A DNA stretch of 64,000 bases from positions 1 to 64,000 of the forward strand of contig KQ965885.1 of NCBI GenBank assembly GCA_001574975.1, given 5' to 3'. The stretch's first letter is position 1, and each line of letters opens with the position of its first letter. This DNA is from Gonapodya prolifera JEL478 (taxonomy: Eukaryota > Monoblepharomycota > Monoblepharidomycetes > Monoblepharidales > Gonapodyaceae). Shown here one piece after another: positions 2,045 through 30,294 of this stretch. The position numbers and the translations under genes are program-made. The notes under the pieces were generated by a model that did no database searches, was not told the DNA's origin, and saw only the letters and a program-made list of their open reading frames with translations.

Positions 2045-2460
2045 GGTTACCAAAACAAGCACAGACCTGATATTGGAGGTGGACCTGATGATATCTTGAT
2101 GATAGTATGAGTTAACAAGTGTATCAAAATAAGAAAATGTCCGATGCAATAAATGTTAGAAATATTTTTATATGAAACAAATTGAAGATTACCATACAAA
2201 TTTGATGTGTTCCTATATGTAAAATAAATATTACTTATAATCCAAGCTTTTTTATTTTTGGTGATCTGAAATATGAAAACATGTTGGGCTTGTTACTGGT
2301 TTAACAAATATAAGTAAGATATTTAAAAATTCAATCACCAAAATCCATAACTAAAATATTTAAAAGAATCAAACCTGTTATTCAAAAGTAAAAGATTAAG
2401 AGGTGAGGGTATCCCTCCTTTGAGTGGGGGTACTCCCCTGGGTGGGGGTATGTAAAACTT
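2045..2460. other. AT-rich gene-free stretch
   Basis: Strongly AT-rich sequence with no supportable frame. At its right end, 2398-2450, are three short GC palindromes of the type gagggtatccctc and ggggtactcccc, just before the retroelement remnant. Confidence 0.5.
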
Positions 2461-2990
2461 GTGACACGCCACGCATTAGAAATGGTAGTTGAAAATGGCG
2501 TGCTTGTTCGTACTGTAGTCCAAACGCGGACAGCACCAGACAGTAACAAGAAGCGCCGCACAATCAAGCAACGCATTGAAGGCGCCCCGTTACAAGTTGT
2601 CATCCTCAAAAACAGAAGGGAAGAGATGCTTCGCATGTACCACAATGATCCATCAAGTGCACATGCAGGCTCGACAGCAATGGTGAAAGCAATGACGGGA
2701 AAATTCTATTGGTACCAAATGGCATGAACAATACAAGATTACGTTCACAATAAGCGCTTGATGTGCCAATCGAGACAACCAAACCGGCCAAAGCACCAAG
2801 GCTTATTGCGACCGTTTGACTTCTCAGCGTCGCAGCCTTTTGATGACATATGCCTTGATCACGCTAGGCCATTCCCAGTTAGCAAGCATGGTAACGCATA
2901 TATTCTTGTGATTATGTGCATGTTTACAAGGGTAGTCAAGTTGGTTGCTGTACCCGATACCAGTGTCACCATAGCCTCAGGTGACATCCA
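2461..2990 (+). pseudogene. Ty3/gypsy integrase N-terminal remnant
   Basis: Reads as the integrase zinc-finger region and the start of the catalytic core of a Ty3/gypsy Pol protein. A His-His pair (MYHNDPSSAH) is followed by a degenerate Cys pair in which the first Cys is Arg (KRLMCQS), then PFD.ICLDHARPFPV, where family members have a D.xGPFP motif and the Gly is Ala here. There is an in-frame TGA at 2725-2727. The frame stops at the junction with the MITE-like repeat, before the second Asp and the Glu of the DDE triad. Reverse transcriptase, RNase H, protease and gag are absent. Dead element. Confidence 0.8.
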
Positions 2991-3202
2991 TTGACATGGT
3001 ATATATAGTGTGAGGTGTTAAGTGCTGTGCCACTACTGTGGTCATGTATTTAGATGAGTGCACCTGCAGGGCGTGCCCCAAGTTTGGCGTCACGTTCCTG
3101 CAGGTGAGTTCTGTGTGCGCTACAACATATTATGTATGTTTGATCAGATATATACACGTTCCTGCAGTTAACAGGCTCGTGCAGCTCACCTAGGTTGTGT
3201 AG
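2961..3202 (-). repeat. MITE-like repeat, copy 2, inside the retroelement
   Basis: Reverse complement of the repeat at 1801 and 8942: begins cagtgtcaccatagcctcagg and ends cacctaggttgtgtag. It sits between the integrase core remnant and the Pol C-terminal/chromodomain frame, exactly where ~150 residues of integrase should be. The insertion therefore accompanies, or replaced, a deletion of the catalytic core. Confidence 0.7.
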
Positions 3203-3737
3203 CAGGATCGGGCCTTTCAGAGTTGTGGAGAAGGTGACGGACGTGACTTATGAATTAGAGCACTTCCGCATGGGAAAAGTCATCCAAGCACACGTCAATA
3301 GGCTAAGAAAAATCAAGCCATACGTGCATGCAGTGGACAAGCCCGTAGCTGCACGTCTTCAAGATCAAGATGAGTCGGTAGATCTTACCACCGACCTGGG
3401 AATGTTACCAAAACGTAACTATCCTACACCAGTAGCATCTACAGCTGATAATGAAGCTAGCTCCGATATGGAGTCTATCATCAACGGAAGAATCCGCAAT
3501 GGTGCCGTCCAATACTTGGTGAAGTTCGTTGGATATGACGAACCCAAGTGGATCTTGGAAGACAAGATTGACAGTCACGACATGATTAACGAATTTAATC
3601 GACGTTTCCCAGTTGAGGCCGAAAAACTCAAGACTGGAAAAGCCACCAGAAAGGCGAAGCGGCGGCGTACAGCAGAAGCTCGCAAAAAGGCAACCGCAAG
3701 CACCGAGCAAGACGGGCCAGAGCAGATGATGACTTGA
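3203..3737 (+). pseudogene. Retroelement Pol C-terminus with chromodomain
   Basis: Starts at GPFRVVEKV, the conserved post-integrase GPF/Y-like motif of chromoviruses, followed by a linker and a chromodomain-like segment (IINGRIRNGAVQYLVKF then GYDEPKWILE) and a basic tail (KATRKAKRRRTAEARKK). It is open to a TGA at 3735. Chromodomains of this family direct integration to heterochromatin. The gene is headless because the integrase core upstream is lost. Confidence 0.8.
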
Positions 3738-4362
3738 TCGCGACGAGAACGGGTTATTAAGCCTGTTACGTCCACAATGTTGACGGGTTTTTACGTTGAT
3801 CAAAGTGGTGATCAACCACAGCATCAGCGACGGTGAACAGCAAACCGCGAGGGGTTTTCCTCACGAACGGTTTGGTCAGATTCCCTGAAAATCACCAAAT
3901 ACCCAGACAAACATTGGTCCAGTAAGAAAGCCCCATTTTTGCAAGGGTTGTCAGCGGCTTTCTCAAGTTGCATGTGCAACGAGAGGTTTCTCGGTTTTCC
4001 TCTCAAATGAGGCAAAGACGATGGAGAGGTTTTCATTTTTTATCCTCGATTGTCCATACGTGCTTTGGGAAGGTTATTTTTTCCCCTTCCGCGATGGGTG
4101 GTTTACCTTTTTCCCCGCCACTTGATGTTACGAAGGTTTATTTTTTCCTTCACGTGATGATTGTTATGATGGGTTTATTTTTTCCCCATACCGGTGGTTT
4201 CCAATTTTTACCACCAATGCTGTTGATGAGTGCAAACATGATTGGGATCACACAAAGTCCCAACGGGTTACATTCACGGGTTATTTTTTCCCCCCCGATT
4301 TATACGTACATTCCAGAGTTACATTTTTCTCTGGGTAGCTCCGGGCGAACGTGGGCGTCCGC
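3738..4362 (+). other. Retroelement 3' untranslated region with T6C4 motifs
   Basis: Non-coding stretch between the chromodomain stop and the polypurine tract. The motif ggtttattttttcccc or a close variant recurs near 4072, 4134, 4171 and 4278, with looser forms nearby, spaced about 35-105 bp. Open frames here are low-complexity. It is best read as the 3' UTR of the element. Confidence 0.55.
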
Positions 4363-4364
4363 CT

Positions 4365-4379
4365 AAAACAGGTGGGGGG
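4365..4379 (+). other. Polypurine tract
   Basis: aaaacaggtgggggg immediately precedes the LTR start, the expected position and composition of the plus-strand primer of an LTR retrotransposon. Confidence 0.7.
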
Positions 4380-4603
4380 TGTCGCGGAACTGACAACAAC
4401 CGCGAGGGCATTGGTACGCCGCTTCGGGGTGGCGCCCGACAGGGGCTCGGCGCCGGCTGGGCGTTAGGGCAATACCCTGAGGCACGACGCCAACACCCGG
4501 CGCACACACTATACAAGCCATAGCTACGGGGTTGTATTAATCAATCCAACCAATACACACGCTTCTACCCTATTCTACCACTGACCCACAATCCACAGTG
4601 ACA
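4380..4603 (+). repeat. 3' LTR of the gypsy element
   Basis: A 224 bp segment begins TGTCGC and ends GTGACA, an imperfect short inverted terminal repeat of the TG..CA type, directly after the polypurine tract. An interior TATA-like 'actatacaa' lies near 4508. No second LTR is seen upstream in the window, so the element is 5' truncated. A target-site duplication cannot be checked without the other end. Confidence 0.65.
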
Positions 4604-4668
4604 GTACCGTCACACGGTCCTGCAATTAGGAGGGTCAATGAGGTGTTTGGAGCGAACACATTCTATCA

Positions 4669-5146
4669 TATGTCCTGCGGCAACAACAATATTGTACTAC
4701 GCGTGAAGGAGTCGTACCAAGTTTATTTGACATCGCGATTGCGACTTGGGAAACAACTGGACGAGAAACCACATACTTTGCTGTTTTCGTTCATTTCATG
4801 TGGCGCCGCAGACGGACGGGCGTCGCATCTGGTGTATTTGGAAGCAGCAGTACTGTCATATATTTTAGATACCAAAACAACCTCAGTGTTTAAATGTGAA
4901 CTTAACACGAAAACAAATACACACTCTGTTTCACCTGATTACACTCCTTGGAGATTGTTGAATATGCCTCAATCCTTGGATGTTGGAATAAATAGACCAA
5001 AGCATTATGAAGTGCATGAGACACCATTAGAAGGGGATGATCCATTTACAAAGAACGTAAGTACTTATTTGAACCATCTGAATATGTTATTGTTAATATT
5101 GATTGTGTTTCAATTTACACTGCATGTACTCATCTTAAGAACTTGA
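4669..5146 (+). CDS. Unrecognised ORF after the LTR
   Basis: Open frame of ~159 codons from the ATG at 4669, AT-rich relative to its neighbours, ending in a hydrophobic tail (HLNMLLLILIVFQFTLHV). A donor-like gtaagt near 5058 suggests the tail may be intron. I recognise no family. The next ~250 bases (5150-5400) hold nothing identifiable. It could be a fragment of another mobile element. Confidence 0.2.
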
Positions 5147-22237: not shown

Positions 22238-24334
22238 TTATGGCAGTGTTTGAACTTGAAGAAGTCCGCCACCCGCTCCAGGTCGACCTCCAAAAATCAT
22301 CTCGTCCTTCCACCCTTCCGCATTCACCTTGGCAGGGAACTTCTTGGCAAGATATTGCTGGAAAACTCCCTCCGTGAAACGTTCGACCTCGTTGTCAGGA
22401 ACAAGGTGAACCGTACAACCTCCCCAGCCTACGGACGGCAATGAATCAGAGAGGTGCGATTAAAACAGTTAGCCAACACAAATGAGCACACCTGCACCTG
22501 TCAGGCGAGAGCCAAGTGATCCGAGTGACCTGGTTGGGTTGTGATGATACATCAAGTCACCAATACCATGACAAAAACTGACGCTCATCAATCACTCACC
22601 TGCCAATGTTGCAGACCTCATCAATTTCAGGGCACGAGCATTCAAACAAGTCGCGGCAGCTGTCCTGGCTCTCGTTCATCAAGCGACCGAGTTCGTTAAC
22701 CGCATTCGCGCCTCCTTTCTCACAGACCTCGCGGAAAGCGTACACACGCTCCGCTTCCGTGAGAACGTGCCGTAATCGGTTGTAAAGCATGAACTGGTCC
22801 CCAGCAATCCGCATATCCCCAACAAAGCGGCTCCACCAATCGTTGCCGAGTTCCGAGGCAATCTCAGCGCGAGTCCAACCACGACTCGCACGGTCATCGA
22901 AAGCTGATTTTGGGCCCAAGAGATAGTCCACGAGTACGACCATCTGCTGTAGGACCGAGCGTGCCGTTTTAGGAGTGAATGCTGGTTGGCTTTGCTGTTC
23001 CAGGTACAAGTCTTGGAACGACCGGATTGTGGGTTGTTTCGGTAATGTTGGAAGAGGAATACCGTGGTGCTTGTACAGAAGCGCCGCTTTAGACGAGCAG
23101 TAAGGTCAGCTCATTTTGTGCGCCTAGGATATTGTCACCCACCAGCTGCCCGGGTTTCGACAACTCTTCGATTGTAGTTCGCCGGAGCGGTTTCTGCTTT
23201 ATCTGCAACTACTCCAGTATTGACCACGGCAAACTTGACACCCTGGGGAACGGTGACAACTTCAGCGGACAACTTTGGGACGAAGTTTATCGTGAGGCAG
23301 CATCCTCTCCTGCCAAGAAGCGAAATGGATTGGTCCATGCCACCACATGAGACACCTGCGAGGTGTTCAGCCCTGATGGCTTGTGGAACAAGGTCTTCCG
23401 ATGAAATGGTCGTTTGACCCAATCCAAAGGCGATAGCTTCGCAAAGGGAGCAGCTGAACGCCGCTGACGAAGAAACGCCGGCACCCTAATTGTAGGATAA
23501 TGATAGTGGATGGAGTGAATAAGAGCTACTGGTGTATAACGAGTGGTACTGACTGCAGGGACAGATCCGTCCACAAAAATGTCGAATCCGACAAGCGCTG
23601 TTGGCTTTAGAAAATCGAGCATGCTCTTCATGTAAAAAGTTTCAGAGCGTGTCATTAGGGGGTAGATTGATCGCGTTCATAGTCAAAAACAGCTCACCTT
23701 GAAGCCCCCCTTCAGGTAGTTCATCCAATCACTACTGTGACCGGAGGTGGCACTTAGTTGAACGTACCCTTGCTCCTGCGACAGAAGGGGGAACGAGCGT
23801 GTTGGGAATTTTTCGGGGCTGGAGTTGTGAACTGTGACGGTTGGAGGGGAGCTTGTGTTGACGCGAACGGCCATCTCCAATTCGATTGGTGTGAAGAAAA
23901 TGCGTATCAAGCGCAGATAGAGCTTCACATGCTTACCACAACATCCTGAGTTGAAAGCGCCAGTGGGAGGACTGAGTATCCAGAATAATCAATGTGTTCT
24001 CCAATAATGTTCACTCGGCCTGGATCAAACGGAGTCCAGTCAGGGTAGTTGACGCATTCGATTCGACGCCGAATCTTACCGGGACTTCGGGCGAAAAATG
24101 TGGGAGCATGTCCAAACTTGGCTTCAAAGTTGGCTTTGATAGTGTGCCAGCGAGCACTAGATCGGTATTCGCAAAGTGGTCACTTTTCGGTTTTATCGAA
24201 TTGGTCTGGTCCTTTTCTCACGTTTGCGAAGGAACGTCTGCTTCTTCGTACACATCGGCAAGAGATTGGAAAACTCGAAGTCCAGAGGAAGCTTCCATCT
24301 CGTTGTCCGCAGAGCCTGTTTGCGACACCGTCAT
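22238..24334 (-). CDS. GAL1: Galactokinase
   Basis: Nine exons (24334-24222, 24156-24080, 24019-23937, 23874-23698, 23625-23554, 23485-23143, 23086-22600, 22529-22492, 22428-22238) join in phase to 526 residues, the usual length for fungal galactokinases. It has the galactokinase signature [16 protein letters not shown] (~62-77), the GHMP ATP-binding motif [28 protein letters not shown], and the C-terminal GHMP motif [13 protein letters not shown]. The reaction is phosphorylation of D-galactose at C1, the first step of the Leloir pathway, in the cytosol. No epimerase or uridylyltransferase lies beside it. The regulatory Gal3-type alternative cannot be excluded, but both substrate motifs look intact. 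Confidence 0.93.
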
Positions 24335-24596: not shown

Positions 24597-27500
24597 CTAC
24601 TCCTCTTCCAAATCCTTCGTGACTGACAAAATAACCCTTCGATTGTTTCCCGCACTCCTCTCATCACCTTCCTTCTCGCGTTCCTTCTCCTTCTGCCCGC
24701 CCTTACTGGCTTCCGAGCTTGACTCAACCTTGAGGTGCCGCTGACTGCCGCTTCCGCCCGCGAAATCCCTCCAAACTTTAGCAGCCTCCTCATTGTAGAA
24801 GCGCACAATTTTCACAGCCCGGTTCTGTGTTGCCATGGTGGGGAATGTGATCTTAAATGTTCCGCCGGTGTGTCGCTCTGCGTCCTTGTCTTGTCGCCCG
24901 CGGCCCTTCATTTCGAGCTCAACCATCTCAAGCTTCCCGCCGACCACTGCAAATGATTCAGCAGAGATGCGCTCATCTTCGTTGGATTCGAAAAGGACCA
25001 CACCCAAGGGTGGTATGTAGCAGATGGATTGCCGGACCCAGCGCTTGCGAAAGATGTTACTGTGGAGGACGAGGCATTTGTTGCGAATGATCTGGGAATT
25101 GCAGGTTGCACAGTAAGAAGCCGAAATATCTTCCATGTATCGCACTGAGAATCCAACCCACATGCACAACGACTGGTGCTTCGCTATGTTTACACACCCC
25201 GTACAAATCGGTTTCAGTCACCGGGGCCATGGGATGAGCGTAGTCTCTGTCGGATTTTGTGAAACTCATCCCAGCAGAGTGATGTGACAGTTCGCCGGAG
25301 AAAGCGTCACTATCGTCTTTGCCATTGGCGGAGCGGTACACACGGAGAAGGCGCGGGCCATGAATCACCGAGATGAGAATGCTGCGAACGCGATTGCAGG
25401 TGGGAAACCAAGTCGAAATTAGGAGCGGTAGGGTAAACTCACACAATGAGTATGATAGAACACAGCGTCCGGAAAATAAAATTCCCCTCAGGACTGAGAT
25501 CTGTGGTGAACAGTACCAAAGTGCATACGCAACCCAAGAAGAGCGCGTTACCGCAAGCGAAGAAAATGTGTGAGCTCCGCTCAATCAGTGGATCAAACAC
25601 CTCCCGCGTTTTCCATGCGAGGACCATCGCGGAGACAAGTAAGCACCAATTGTATGCAATAAACACGATCAAATGAATGTTGATGTCAGTGTTCCGCCTG
25701 CCCAAGCCGCAGACCTGCATTCGAGCACCATCCTTGGAGGTTTGCTTGACGACTGACGGCGGATCCAATACAATCCACAGGATAAGAATAACCATGTCCC
25801 CTAGAAGGGGCAGAAGCGCGATCGCGAACAGTCTGGAGCGTGGCAGGGCGACTCCGGAGCTCTCGCTGATAAAGACCTTGTAAACTCCATACAGCCGCAT
25901 GATTATTGGGCCAATGATGGCACTGAATCCGGTACCCAAAAGAACGTAGATACTTGTACACGCAGCAGGAGACCGCGGACCGAGGAGGGACAGACTGGAC
26001 GAAAGAAATACGATGCAACCCACGAGGGTAATGGTACTCGTCAACGGGTTGATCATGGATGGATGTGAGCGATACTTCCACGCCGCCAAAATTACCACTC
26101 CGCAGAGGATTTGTGTGACAGCGGTCGCGGCGAAGCCAATTCCTCCAATAAAACTGTAGACTTGAATCGTAATTGGTTCCGGGAAGACCATGGTGTCGAT
26201 CTCAGAGCATGCGGCAGCGGTGGATTGATCGACGGTCATGTTTCCTTGTACGATACGAGCGAGCATCCGTGGAATAACCTTGCGATCTTCAACATTGGCC
26301 ACTAAAAAAATGACGCCGCTTGATAACGCGAAGGAAAAAGAAGATATGAGATAGCACACACTTTCGTAGAATGTAGATCTGCGTTTGGGATATGCGGACA
26401 TGAAAGATCAGGCATCACGTTCGAGTGCCAGTTATCACGAGGAGAAGCACTTACTGAGGAAACGTCTGTGGATACGAATAAGGACTATTGCAGGCTTTTC
26501 CGGATACAGACATGTCCGCAGGATTTTCCAAGTACTTTTCATGTTTTGATGACAGATCTTCAGACGCCATTTATAAACGAGTCGACCCGGGTAACTCACT
26601 TTCAAAGACGTATATGGGCTTATGAGATGCTGGTTGCGAATGGCATTTTGCATGTGACTCTTGCTTGGATCAAGCATAATCTTCATAAATTCGAAGGCAG
26701 CTCTTTTGCGATTGGACCGAGAAGAGATGGCAAGAGCAGTACCGCCACCTATTTGGCAAGGGAATGGTTGAGACCCATTCCGAAGGTGCAAAGGATTCCT
26801 CACGTAGCCTCGAACACTTACCGAAGACGAATCGGCCCCGTGGGCCTCTTGGCACCCTCGCGTAAGCAATGTGGATCTTACTTGTGTTGAACACCGTGTT
26901 TTTGAAGTCAAAGCCGCACTCGTAGTGCACCATGGAAGTATTGGACTGATTGTATGCGCGACTCCAAGTGTCTCCATCAACCATGTGGATGACTCTTCCG
27001 TCAGCAAAGAGGTCACTATAGCCATGTTCGCCAAAAACGACCGCTGAAGCTTCAGGATTTATCTTGGTAGAGCTGTTGAGAAACAGATCTGTCCAAAATT
27101 TGGTCGCTCCTGTGAACTGAGTTGTCGTTAATGCACACTGATACTTGGAGTCCACAATGGAGCCGCCCCAGCTGAGGTAGATTGCTTAAGATGGGTACAT
27201 CATAATGGGAAAAGGAGGTAAGTGTGAGCAAAAGGAAGGTGACGGAAAAGGAGGAAAGGAAAGAATACCTGCGAAATCTTGCAGAGGTCGACTGTCATCG
27301 ACCGAGTAAGACGCTATATAACCCCAATACACTTTCTCTTCCAAAGCAGCGGCCTGCTGGATTTTAAGAGAGTTCTCGAGTAATTCGTGCCACGAGTCCG
27401 GAGGGTCTGTTCGGTTTAGGTAGCGTTGATATAGATCGACACCTTAAGAGGCCGGCATAACAGCAATTCGCAAAGTATTGGATTGCAAAATTGGCAGTAA

Positions 27501-28100
27501 TAGCTCACGGTACACAAAAACTCGTATATCAAGCTCGTATGGGAGCGCCCACCATTGATTGTTTACGTAGTAATCCAAGCTGCCGAAATTGATCTTGAGG
27601 GTGTATGACAACGTCACAGCTTAAGAGAGACTTACAATGATGATCTGGCAATATCCGTTGTAATATCGCCGTCGGGCCTTTCTACCTGCCATCCGACCAA
27701 GAAGTCCGAGATCGGTGCAATTATTCCATCTTTTATAAGTGAACCGGTCCATGTATTCCCGATCAAAAAGACATCCTGCTCAGCCGATATTGAGTCCACA
27801 GATTGCGGGACTTGAAGAAACAAATCAACGTACCGCTACCGTCCCGGCTCTGTCACCGTTTCGAATGATACTGAGCTGTTCTCCCCAACTGGCATAACGA
27901 ACATCTATCCCCCAAGTACCAGCAAATGATTCATTGAACTCCTTAGCAGCAGTGTACCAGCTCGTGCTTTGAAATCCTGGATCCCCGGCTGGGTCGATGT
28001 AAGGTTGGATCAAGATTATTGTCTCCAGAGCGTTACTACTCCATGCCATCCGTAAGAAAAGGATTGCGGAAGGTATCCAGAGGGTGACTAGGTTCCGCAT
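24597..28100 (-). CDS. Class C GPCR fused to a solute-binding domain
   Basis: Eleven exons (28100-27834, 27775-27636, 27579-27509, 27442-27269, 27184-26822, 26748-26600, 26534-26455, 26378-26362, 26301-25443, 25381-25194, 25144-24597) join in phase to 951 residues. After a signal peptide (LVTLWIPSAILFL), residues ~25-455 resemble bacterial extracellular solute-binding protein family 1 (maltose-binding-like): VFLIGNTWTGSLI, YVNNQWWALPYELDIRVF, FGGGTALAISSRSNRKRAAF, RKVIPRMLARIVQGN. Residues ~462-715 carry seven helices of the family 3 type, with the Cys before helix 3 (AACTS) and the loop-2 Cys (MQVCG) that form the conserved disulfide. A ~235-residue cytosolic tail follows with a CATC motif. 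Likely a plasma-membrane sensor of a sugar or other small solute. Exon 8 is only 17 nt. The exon 6/7 acceptor is the weakest joint. Confidence 0.85.
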
Positions 28101-28334
28101 TGAATTGATGGTGCTACGAGAGTCGATCTTGTCAGTTCTTCGTCGCCTTCTGCGAAAGATGTGAAAAGGTATAACCTTAACGATCGGCGAAGGGAAAAGT
28201 AGGTAAGATGGACAATTCAATCATGTTTAAGAAGCCTGGGAAGCTCCGTGATTCGATGAGGGGCGATTGATTGCTTCATTGGTTATTTGCAGGGGCAGTC
28301 ATGGCCTGTCAGGTGACTCGAAACCGGACCACAA
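28101..28334. promoter_or_regulatory. Shared intergenic promoter region, receptor and LanC-like gene
   Basis: 234 bp separate two divergent ATGs (28100 minus, 28335 plus). It must contain both core promoters unless leaders are spliced. No perfect TATA box is evident on either strand. Confidence 0.4.
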
Positions 28335-30124
28335 ATGCGTCCCATGAGAAGAGACAGGAAACCTTCGCTCATCCACGATCGCTACATTGAAAACATTCAC
28401 GCTCAATCAAGTACACCTCTTCCTCGTCCTGAGTCCATCGCAACTTTGAAAGCAGCTCTCGAAGCTGCACTCGACACAAATGCCTCCAATATTCTCATGA
28501 ATCTTCCAAGCGAACCGAGAAGGGGACGTTGGCATGATGTGGATGTGTATACTGGCACGTCCGGTGTAGCGATCGTCTTTCAGAAGATTTGGAATGCTTT
28601 TCCGACCAAAATGCTTCACGCTCGAGGAACCCAGCGCTCTGGGAGCGTGAGTACACATTTCCTTCTTTAAATCCGCCTGTTATGTAACAGTACATCCTCA
28701 GGAAATCTCCCAAGCATATTGTGATATGGCTACAAGGATCATTCCACCTGATGCCTCTAACGGCGTTTCCTTTCTCACCTCTGTCGCGGGGTCCTTGGCA
28801 GTACATTCTGCCATTCTACACAGCTTGTCGCTCAAAGTCTCCACCGATGAAGATAACCGTGGAAGACCTCTAGACACCCTTCGTTCGCGCTCTGTGTCTC
28901 TCGCTCGTGCGTCGCTCGCTTCGGCAATGGAAAGCCTAAAGGATCCATATGACCTCGAGCTTCCTTCCGAATTACTTTACGGGCGATGCGGGTTCTTATA
29001 TCTCGTTCGTTTTCTCGCAGCTAATATTGGAATACAGGACGTGAAAGAAGCTTGTCCGGAAATCGAAGAATTTACCTCTCAAGTTCTTTCTGCTGTTTTG
29101 GAATGTGGTGAGGCAACTGCTCGGGACCCGCGGATTCGTAGGATGCTGGATCAAGTTGGTGGTCATTCTGCCATGGCTCCTCCGCCCAACCGCTTTTGGG
29201 TATGGCATGGAAGTGGCTACCTTGGCGCAGCCCATGGTGTCTATGGGGTTGTCGCCGAGTTGCCTCATTGGCTCCCCCCACTTGTCCAAACATCTACCGC
29301 GGAACTTCAAGGACTGACAAAACCAGCTGACGATATCGGAACATCTTCATCGCCACTCTCATCGCGATCACATCCTTTCTGGAGCAAACTTCGGTCCGAA
29401 ATTGTTTCTCAGTTGCGCTTCCTTCTCTCTCTCTCGAGGAAGGTCGAGCACCATTGTCGAGGCAATCTTCCCACCCGGCTAGAAAAGTGCGCAGGTCTGA
29501 TTTCCGGCACCGGATCCCGTGAGAAAATTCTCGTGCAAATGGTGTCACGGCTCTCCAGGCGGGGTGCTTGCGTGCGTAGCCGCGTATAAAGTGCTTGGCG
29601 ACAAAGATAGGTTGAGCGAGGCTAAAAGAGCGTCGACCGTCGTGTGGCAGCGGGGCCTCCTTACCAAAGGCGTCGGTGAGTATCAGCTAATGTTGTCGTG
29701 TGTTGTTCCGACCTCTGGATTTTTTCCCTACAGGTCTGTGTCACGGTATTGCCGGCAATGGATACTCGTTCTTGCACCTTTACTGGGCCACTGGAGATGC
29801 TGATTTTCTTGTCAAAGCTATTGTGTTTGCGGAGGAAGCAATCAATTGGAAGATTCGTGGGGCGTGATTTCCTTATAGTCGAACTTTGGCTCATTCATGA
29901 TCCTAGAGTCTGTCTCTCCCGCTTCGGACCACCCTTGGTCTCTATTCGAAGGCGATGCAGGGTTAATTGCTTTTCTAACGGACCTCCTCTGTACATTGGA
30001 TGGAAGGCAGGCAACTAATCCAGCGAGCGCCGGCTCTGGAGCCCATGTGGCGTTGAGAGGGTTTCCTGGTCAGATGGACATTCCTAATTGGTGGGAACTT
30101 GAAGCCGCGGAATATTTTGAATGA
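28335..30124 (+). CDS. LanC-like protein
   Basis: Exon 1 28335-28646, exon 2 from 28702, then exons coding WCHGSPGGVLACVAAYK, GLCHGIAGNGYSFLHLY and PWSLFEGDAGLIAFL, ending EAAEYFE-stop at 30124. The family zinc ligands (Cys in WCHG, Cys-His in GLCHG) and glycine helices of the LanC alpha/alpha toroid are present, as is the earlier FWVWHGSGYLGAAHGVYG. Eukaryotic LanC-like proteins add glutathione to dehydroamino acids to repair damaged proteins. The join before WCHG (29525-29545) is unclear: either one extra A or a very short (37 nt) intron. The gene diverges from the GPCR gene; no lantibiotic precursor or LanB is nearby. Confidence 0.85.
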
Positions 30125-30294
30125 CAACGGTGGGGTCCGTTTGCAATAAAACAGATAGACGGAATCGAGTATTGCATTTCTTGTAACGTGTGTGTTTGTA
30201 AAGTCCACGTTCAAGCCAGCGGTTCAGGCAGGTGAGGGGCCTGCTCCAAGAATCAAATTCTCACTTCAACGTCGGGGCGCCACGGCCCCCTGGG

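What the first reader, a model, noticed from the sequence alone, without database searches (positions are those of the whole stretch)
24597..28100. Class C GPCR with a bacterial-type solute-binding sensor domain
The gene encodes signal peptide, ~430-residue solute-binding-protein fold (family 1, maltose-binding-like), seven helices with the family 3 disulfide cysteines, and a long cytosolic tail, all in phase over 11 exons. Metazoan class C receptors use an ANF/LIVBP-type clamshell; the domain here looks like a different periplasmic-binding class. It would let a fungus sense an extracellular sugar or osmolyte directly through a GPCR. Such fusions are, to my knowledge, known only patchily in early fungi.
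Basis: partly seen in the sequence, partly recalled or inferred. Interest (0 to 1): 0.8.

Follow-up and report, generated by a model that had tools for sequence, protein, structure and literature searches.

The report
Fungal receptor with bacterial-type sugar sensor

Summary
On the minus strand, 28100 to 24597, one 11-exon gene encodes about 949 residues: signal peptide, family 1 (type II) solute-binding domain, class C seven-helix domain, cytosolic tail. On the first, 10-exon draft, Pfam gives SBP_bac_1 63 bits, SBP_bac_8 45 and 7tm_3 88.9, all above cut-off. One uninterrupted exon (26301-25443) runs from the end of the binding domain into helix 7. Paralogs in the same genome share intron positions (7 of 8, 7 of 8, 7 of 10 and 4 of 9), so two separate genes are very unlikely. 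Nearest solved relatives by sequence profile: trehalose/maltose-binding protein (E 1.7e-17) and GABA-B helices (E 3.1e-20). The architecture is published: Allomyces (PMC3251606), gut fungi, where almost half of class C receptors have it (PMC5168858), and Plasmodiophora (PMC4815078). So this is a new member of a known kind. Most likely it senses an extracellular oligosaccharide; ligand and G-protein coupling are untested. The least ordinary part is a conserved tail domain that resembles a PH domain, below every cut-off.

The parts
27840..28100 (-). exon 1: start codon, signal peptide (about residues 1-24, by eye), start of the solute-binding domain
   Evidence: spliced model
27636..27775 (-). 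exon 2: solute-binding domain
   Evidence: spliced model; introns 1 and 2 shared with C45, C132, C18
27509..27579 (-). exon 3: solute-binding domain
   Evidence: intron 3 shared with C45, C132, C18
27269..27442 (-). exon 4: solute-binding domain
   Evidence: intron 4 shared with all four paralogs compared
26822..27184 (-). exon 5: solute-binding domain
   Evidence: intron 5 shared with C45, C132
26600..26748 (-). exon 6: solute-binding domain
   Evidence: the exon 5/6 join lies inside one weak (16.6 bits) match to PDB 7c6f; intron 6 shared with all four paralogs compared
26455..26534 (-). exon 7: solute-binding domain
   Evidence: intron 7 is in none of the four paralogs compared
26362..26378 (-). 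exon 8 (17 nt)
   Evidence: intron 8 shared with all four paralogs compared
25443..26301 (-). [quoted passage not shown]
   Evidence: hydrophobic segments
25194..25381 (-). exon 10: end of helix 7 and start of the cytosolic tail
   Evidence: intron 9 shared with C18 and C81
24597..25144 (-). exon 11: tail with a conserved, perhaps PH-like, domain and a charged end, stop codon included

Best explanation
It is a class C G-protein-coupled receptor whose extracellular clamshell is a type II (SBP family 1) solute-binding domain of the bacterial carbohydrate-binding sort. Most likely an oligosaccharide or glycoside outside the cell closes the clamshell; the closure is passed through a short linker (no cysteine-rich domain, as in GABA-B receptors) to the seven helices, which activate a heterotrimeric G protein; the conserved tail domain probably holds the receptor at the membrane or binds a partner. 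Shown by sequence: the domains, their fusion in one gene, the family in the genome, G-alpha matches in the genome. Inferred: ligand class, clamshell closure, G-protein coupling, role of the tail.
For: Pfam SBP_bac_1 63 bits (cut-off 26), SBP_bac_8 45 (27), 7tm_3 88.9 (33.5) in one protein, the 969-aa draft. With the SBP profile 11 distinct PDB sequences match at E <= 1e-5, led by trehalose/maltose-binding protein 1eu8; 7 of the 11 carry a sugar, maltose or trehalose name. GABA-B subunit 2 leads the 7TM matches. One exon spans SBP end and 7TM; same layout in C18 and C81. Intron sharing and codon-position bias. C45/C132 dN 0.012, dS 0.074. G-alpha matches.
Against: No transcript, ligand or coupling data. 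The one SBP found in the large protein search is only 23% identical, so the sugar cannot be read off; 4 of the 11 PDB matches bear no sugar name. No structure model of the spliced ectodomain was made. One paralog (C3) looks decayed.
Confidence: 0.72

Rival explanations
1. The clamshell senses something other than a carbohydrate (osmolyte, amino acid, peptide).
For: SBP family 1 profiles cover varied solutes (recalled); identity to known binders is low; 4 of 11 PDB matches bear no sugar name.
Against: 7 of the 11 PDB matches with the SBP profile bear a sugar name; gut-fungus relatives are reported as invariably similar to sugar-uptake SBPs (PMC5168858, passages).
Confidence: 0.2
2. The fusion is not a signalling receptor but an uptake device: the clamshell captures sugar and the seven-helix part moves it or hands it to a transporter, as proposed for the Plasmodiophora fusions.
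For: The Plasmodiophora authors call SBP_bac_1+7tm3 fusions putative transporters (PMC4815078, passages).
Against: The helices are class C GPCR by profile, closest to GABA-B in the PDB; no ATPase or permease domain matched; TM3/ECL2 cysteines invariant in the three aligned.
Confidence: 0.05
3. Two neighbouring genes, a secreted SBP and a 7TM protein, wrongly joined.
For: Nothing direct; no cDNA was available.
Against: Exon 9 is open from the SBP C-terminal helices into TM7; same layout in paralogs on other contigs.
Confidence: 0.02

Closest known systems
SBP_bac_1 + 7tm_3 receptors of Allomyces macrogynus (Krishnan et al. 2012, PMC3251606)
   Same: Class C 7TM with an N-terminal SBP_bac_1 domain; 8 sequences reported.
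   Different: Sequences were not compared directly here; no tail domain is described in the passages I read.
Class C GPCRs of anaerobic gut fungi with SBP type II domains (Seppala et al. 2016, PMC5168858)
   Same: Type II sugar-type SBP, no nine-cysteine domain, 7TM; almost half of the receptors.
   Different: The word pleckstrin is absent from the main text. Those fungi had no ANF-type class C receptor; this genome appears to have one with a type I clamshell (unspliced).
Plasmodiophora brassicae 7tm3 + SBP_bac_1/PBP fusions (PMC4815078)
   Same: Same domain pair in another eukaryotic lineage.
   Different: Interpreted there as transporters.
GABA-B receptor
   Same: Best 7TM match in the PDB; clamshell joined to the helices without a cysteine-rich domain.
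   Different: GABA-B clamshell is type I (ANF); here type II.
Trehalose/maltose-binding protein 1eu8
   Same: Best solved match of the ectodomain.
   Different: A bacterial/archaeal importer component (recalled), no 7TM.

Membership tests
Class C (family 3) GPCR | 7tm_3 seven-helix domain above curated cut-off | tested here: met
   88.9 bits, cut-off 33.5
Class C (family 3) GPCR | TM3 / ECL2 disulfide cysteines | tested here: met
   C533 and C616 invariant in the 3 members aligned; their assignment as the pair is by recalled position
Class C (family 3) GPCR | large clamshell (Venus flytrap) ectodomain | tested here: met
   met by sequence, but type II rather than type I
Class C (family 3) GPCR | nine-cysteine domain (absent in GABA-B, so not required) | tested here: not met
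   no NCD3G match in Pfam at E up to 1
Class C (family 3) GPCR | ligand-driven G-protein activation | not testable with these tools
   only G-alpha matches in the genome shown
Bacterial solute-binding protein family 1 (SBP_bac_1/8) | profile match above curated cut-off over most of the domain | tested here: met
   63 bits over profile 14-303 of 307; SBP_bac_8 45 bits, cut-off 27
Bacterial solute-binding protein family 1 (SBP_bac_1/8) | type II alpha/beta clamshell fold | not tested
   spliced protein not submitted for folding; inferred from homology to 1eu8 and others
GABA-B receptor | type I ANF-type clamshell | tested here: not met
   no ANF or Peripla_BP match at E up to 1; not filed as GABA-B
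PH domain (tail) | PF00169 match above curated cut-off | tested here: not met
   1 of 4 tails hits PH, 14.2 bits against 25.1; not filed as PH
PH domain (tail) | PH fold | tested here: inconclusive
   single-sequence AlphaFold2 pLDDT 41.2; hhalign score above all 45 controls but probability 1.85%

The most novel reading that the evidence does not exclude
The receptor joins recognition modules on both sides of the membrane: a bacterial-type sugar clamshell outside and a divergent PH-like domain in the tail that could bind lipid or a G-protein partner, so the receptor carries its own membrane or effector dock. The tail domain is conserved in four members of the family in this genome, and I found no description of it in the searches named.
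Probability: 0.35. Interest if true: 0.5.

Novelty: new member of a known kind. Interest (0 to 1): 0.3.

Why it matters
It adds a spliced, paralog-supported example of fungal class C receptors with a type II sugar-type clamshell, in a genome that appears also to have a class C receptor with a type I clamshell. It fits the published idea that 7TM and periplasmic-binding domains were joined more than once, and gives a concrete candidate for how swimming fungal spores might sense sugars. A 2026 review table lists the fungal glutamate class as not functionalised (PMC13308352, passages).

Tried and rejected
My first 10-exon, 969-aa model contained an extra hydrophobic stretch before TM1; paralogs showed that it is an unspliced intron, so the model was replaced. 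Searches used the 969-aa draft or a piece of it, with 20 extra residues around 415-438. That stretch lies outside the SBP_bac_1 (52-364) and 7tm_3 (492-730) matches; those searches were not rerun.

Protein database searches gave little: one hit each for the whole protein and for the SBP profile (in one search only the 7995 best candidates were scored). P0001 is another 7tm_3 protein, with a PBP_like_2 domain; P0002 is an SBP without 7TM. The genome-contig scan found no confirmed relative (72 stretches matched a pattern, none confirmed), so no bacterial donor can be named. The organism was not identified; radial-spoke matches say only that it is probably a fungus with a swimming stage.

Rows left out: alignment A2 holds 3 members (window, C45, C18), A3 holds 3 (window, C18, C81), A1 holds 4 (window, C132, C18, C81); partial, N-interrupted or decayed copies were left out. 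In one search I left out C3, C25 and C97, dropped one leading piece of the C45 reading and one trailing exon of the C81 reading, and skipped codons with N.

The tail: single-sequence folding failed (pLDDT 41.2), so no fold search was made. Its profile found nothing meaningful in the PDB (one hit at E 1.2). The longer open frame around exon 11 gave only MGC-24 at 11.1 bits, below cut-off. Tail sequences were not found at C3 (one strand, two tails as query) nor at C25, C97 and C47 (both strands, one tail). A PDB search with one PH domain of the genome found no PH chain. For one search I used five of the seven PH pieces. Literature searches for such a tail gave nothing relevant (8 papers, 6 listed; 0 papers).

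A six-frame search of the genome with PF01547 found nothing, not even the window gene, because the domain is cut into small exons; it says nothing about copy number.

Full report
WHAT IS THERE. The minus strand from 28100 to 24597 carries one gene of 11 exons. Introns are 49 to 84 nt; I placed them by hand at GT-AG sites that keep the frame. Residues 1 to about 24 are a signal peptide by eye, about 23-457 the solute-binding domain, about 472-710 the class C helices, and the rest a cytosolic tail.

DOMAINS. On the 969-residue draft, Pfam gives 7tm_3 E 5.6e-25 (88.9 bits), SBP_bac_1 E 6e-17 (63 bits) and SBP_bac_8 E 1.6e-11 (45 bits), all above the curated cut-offs. By sequence against the PDB the draft matches trehalose/maltose-binding protein 1eu8 (E 2.9e-12), other SBPs, and GABA-B and metabotropic glutamate receptors (56 distinct sequences at E <= 0.1). 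With profiles made from three family members each, the SBP part reaches 1eu8 at 1.7e-17 (11 distinct sequences at E <= 1e-5, 7 of them with a sugar, maltose or trehalose name) and the 7TM part reaches GABA-B subunit 2 at 3.1e-20 (68 distinct sequences at E <= 0.001, 60 shown). The join of exons 5 and 6 lies inside one weak match (16.6 bits) to the sugar-binding protein 7c6f.

ONE GENE, NOT TWO. The open frame that holds exon 9 runs without a stop from the last helices of the binding domain into the seventh helix. The same layout recurs in C18 and C81. No transcript data were available.

A FAMILY IN THE GENOME. The window lies in an assembly of 47.6 Mb in 207 contigs. 7tm_3 matches five places at E <= 0.001; the protein search (E <= 0.1) matches loci on C45, C132, C18, C81 and C3, plus smaller pieces on C25 and C97, besides the window. 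Spliced reading gave: C45, SBP and the first part of the 7TM, then a run of N; C132, SBP, a run of N, then the tail; C18, nearly complete; C81, from mid-SBP to the tail in the main alignment, with an N-terminal piece found separately; C3, looks decayed; C25 and C97, fragments only. Of the window introns lying in the covered part, 7 of 8 are shared with C45, 7 of 8 with C132, 7 of 10 with C18 and 4 of 9 with C81 (same phase, within one alignment column). Because the window protein guided the splicing, some of that agreement is built in. The third codon position is the most different in all ten pairs compared, and the near-identical pair C45/C132 has dN 0.012 and dS 0.074 over 406 codons, as expected under purifying selection. 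The 7tm_3 place on C47 appears to belong to a different receptor with a type I clamshell: Peripla_BP_6 33.8 bits (cut-off 31.7) in one open frame, and 7tm_3 29.3 bits, under its cut-off of 33.5, in the next; I did not splice this gene.

CYSTEINES. Four cysteines of the SBP domain (C232, C305, C401, C450) are invariant in the three members aligned, which suggests disulfides in a secreted protein (inference). C533 and C616, at the TM3 and ECL2 places, are invariant in the three 7TM domains aligned. No nine-cysteine domain matched.

TAIL. About 120 residues of exon 11 are conserved in the window gene, C132, C18 and C81: 12 invariant columns including a tryptophan near the end; identity to the window tail is 50, 26 and 24%. 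The only Pfam families reported at E up to 10 for these four tails were two PH families, in 1 of 4 members, at 14.2 and 12 bits, below their cut-offs. hhalign against five PH pieces of the same genome scored 16.9, against at most 11.8 for 15 windows of the SBP and 7TM alignments and at most 13.3 for 30 column shuffles; yet the reported probability is only 1.85% and only 32 columns align. The alignment puts the tail's conserved tryptophan on that of the PH C-terminal helix (a PH hallmark, recalled). Against it: the PDB profile search found nothing, single-sequence folding was uninformative, and the longer frame gave only a sub-threshold, unrelated match. I call it PH-like, unproven.

HOW IT PROBABLY WORKS. 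Sugar closes the clamshell, the short linker passes this to the helices, a G protein is activated. The genome has G-alpha matches on several contigs, the best at E 1.1e-65, and a radial-spoke protein, which points to a swimming stage. A galactokinase-type gene lies just downstream on the same strand; this is circumstantial. Ligand, coupling and tail function are inferences.

WHAT IS KNOWN. Read as passages: Krishnan et al. 2012 (PMC3251606) report SBP_bac_1 in 8 Allomyces receptors, and other domains of Pfam clan CL0177 in receptors of Allomyces and Spizellomyces. Seppala et al. 2016 (PMC5168858) report that almost half of gut-fungus class C receptors have a type II SBP domain resembling sugar-uptake SBPs, and that none was found with ANF. 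The Plasmodiophora genome paper (PMC4815078) reports seven proteins joining 7tm3 with bacterial SBP or PBP domains. Liu et al. 2025 (PMC12842992) count 918 glutamate-class receptors in a survey of 1357 fungal species, enriched in Blastocladiomycota and Chytridiomycota. A 2026 review (PMC13308352) lists this class as not functionalised. Read as a section: the eLife 2025 study (PMC12716839, section 9) describes other ectodomains in relatives of animals. So the architecture is known; this gene is a new member. Direct sequence comparison with those published receptors was not made.

VERDICT. Observation confirmed; interpretation right on anatomy, unproven on function, too generous on rarity. Interest 0.3, mainly for the family in one genome and the tail domain.

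Noticed in passing
window 24597-25144 (-) and tails in L018, L019, L023: Conserved tail domain with weak PH resemblance, below every cut-off.
   Followed up: partly
L021 (G000:C47:304000-312000), about 2262-4950 +: Probably another class C receptor gene in the same genome, with a type I clamshell (Peripla_BP_6 33.8 bits; 7tm_3 29.3 bits, below cut-off; not spliced).
   Followed up: partly
L020 (G000:C3:777500-785500) -: A paralog of the SBP-7TM receptor that looks decayed: part of the helices is missing and no tail was found.
   Followed up: partly
L022 and L023 (C45, C132): Two SBP-7TM copies 97% identical over 406 codons, both interrupted by runs of N; recent duplicates or separated haplotypes.
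   Followed up: no
window about 22600-24217 (-): Galactokinase-type gene (galactose-binding signature 60.8 bits, GHMP kinase 33.7 bits) just downstream of the receptor on the same strand.
   Followed up: partly
window 28317-30200 (+): A gene on the other strand beside the receptor's start, perhaps LanC-like by eye only; the longest piece has no Pfam hit at E 0.001.
   Followed up: no
P0001: An unnamed 1115-aa protein joining PBP_like_2 (117.8 bits) with 7tm_3 (153.7 bits): another non-ANF clamshell on a class C receptor.
   Followed up: no
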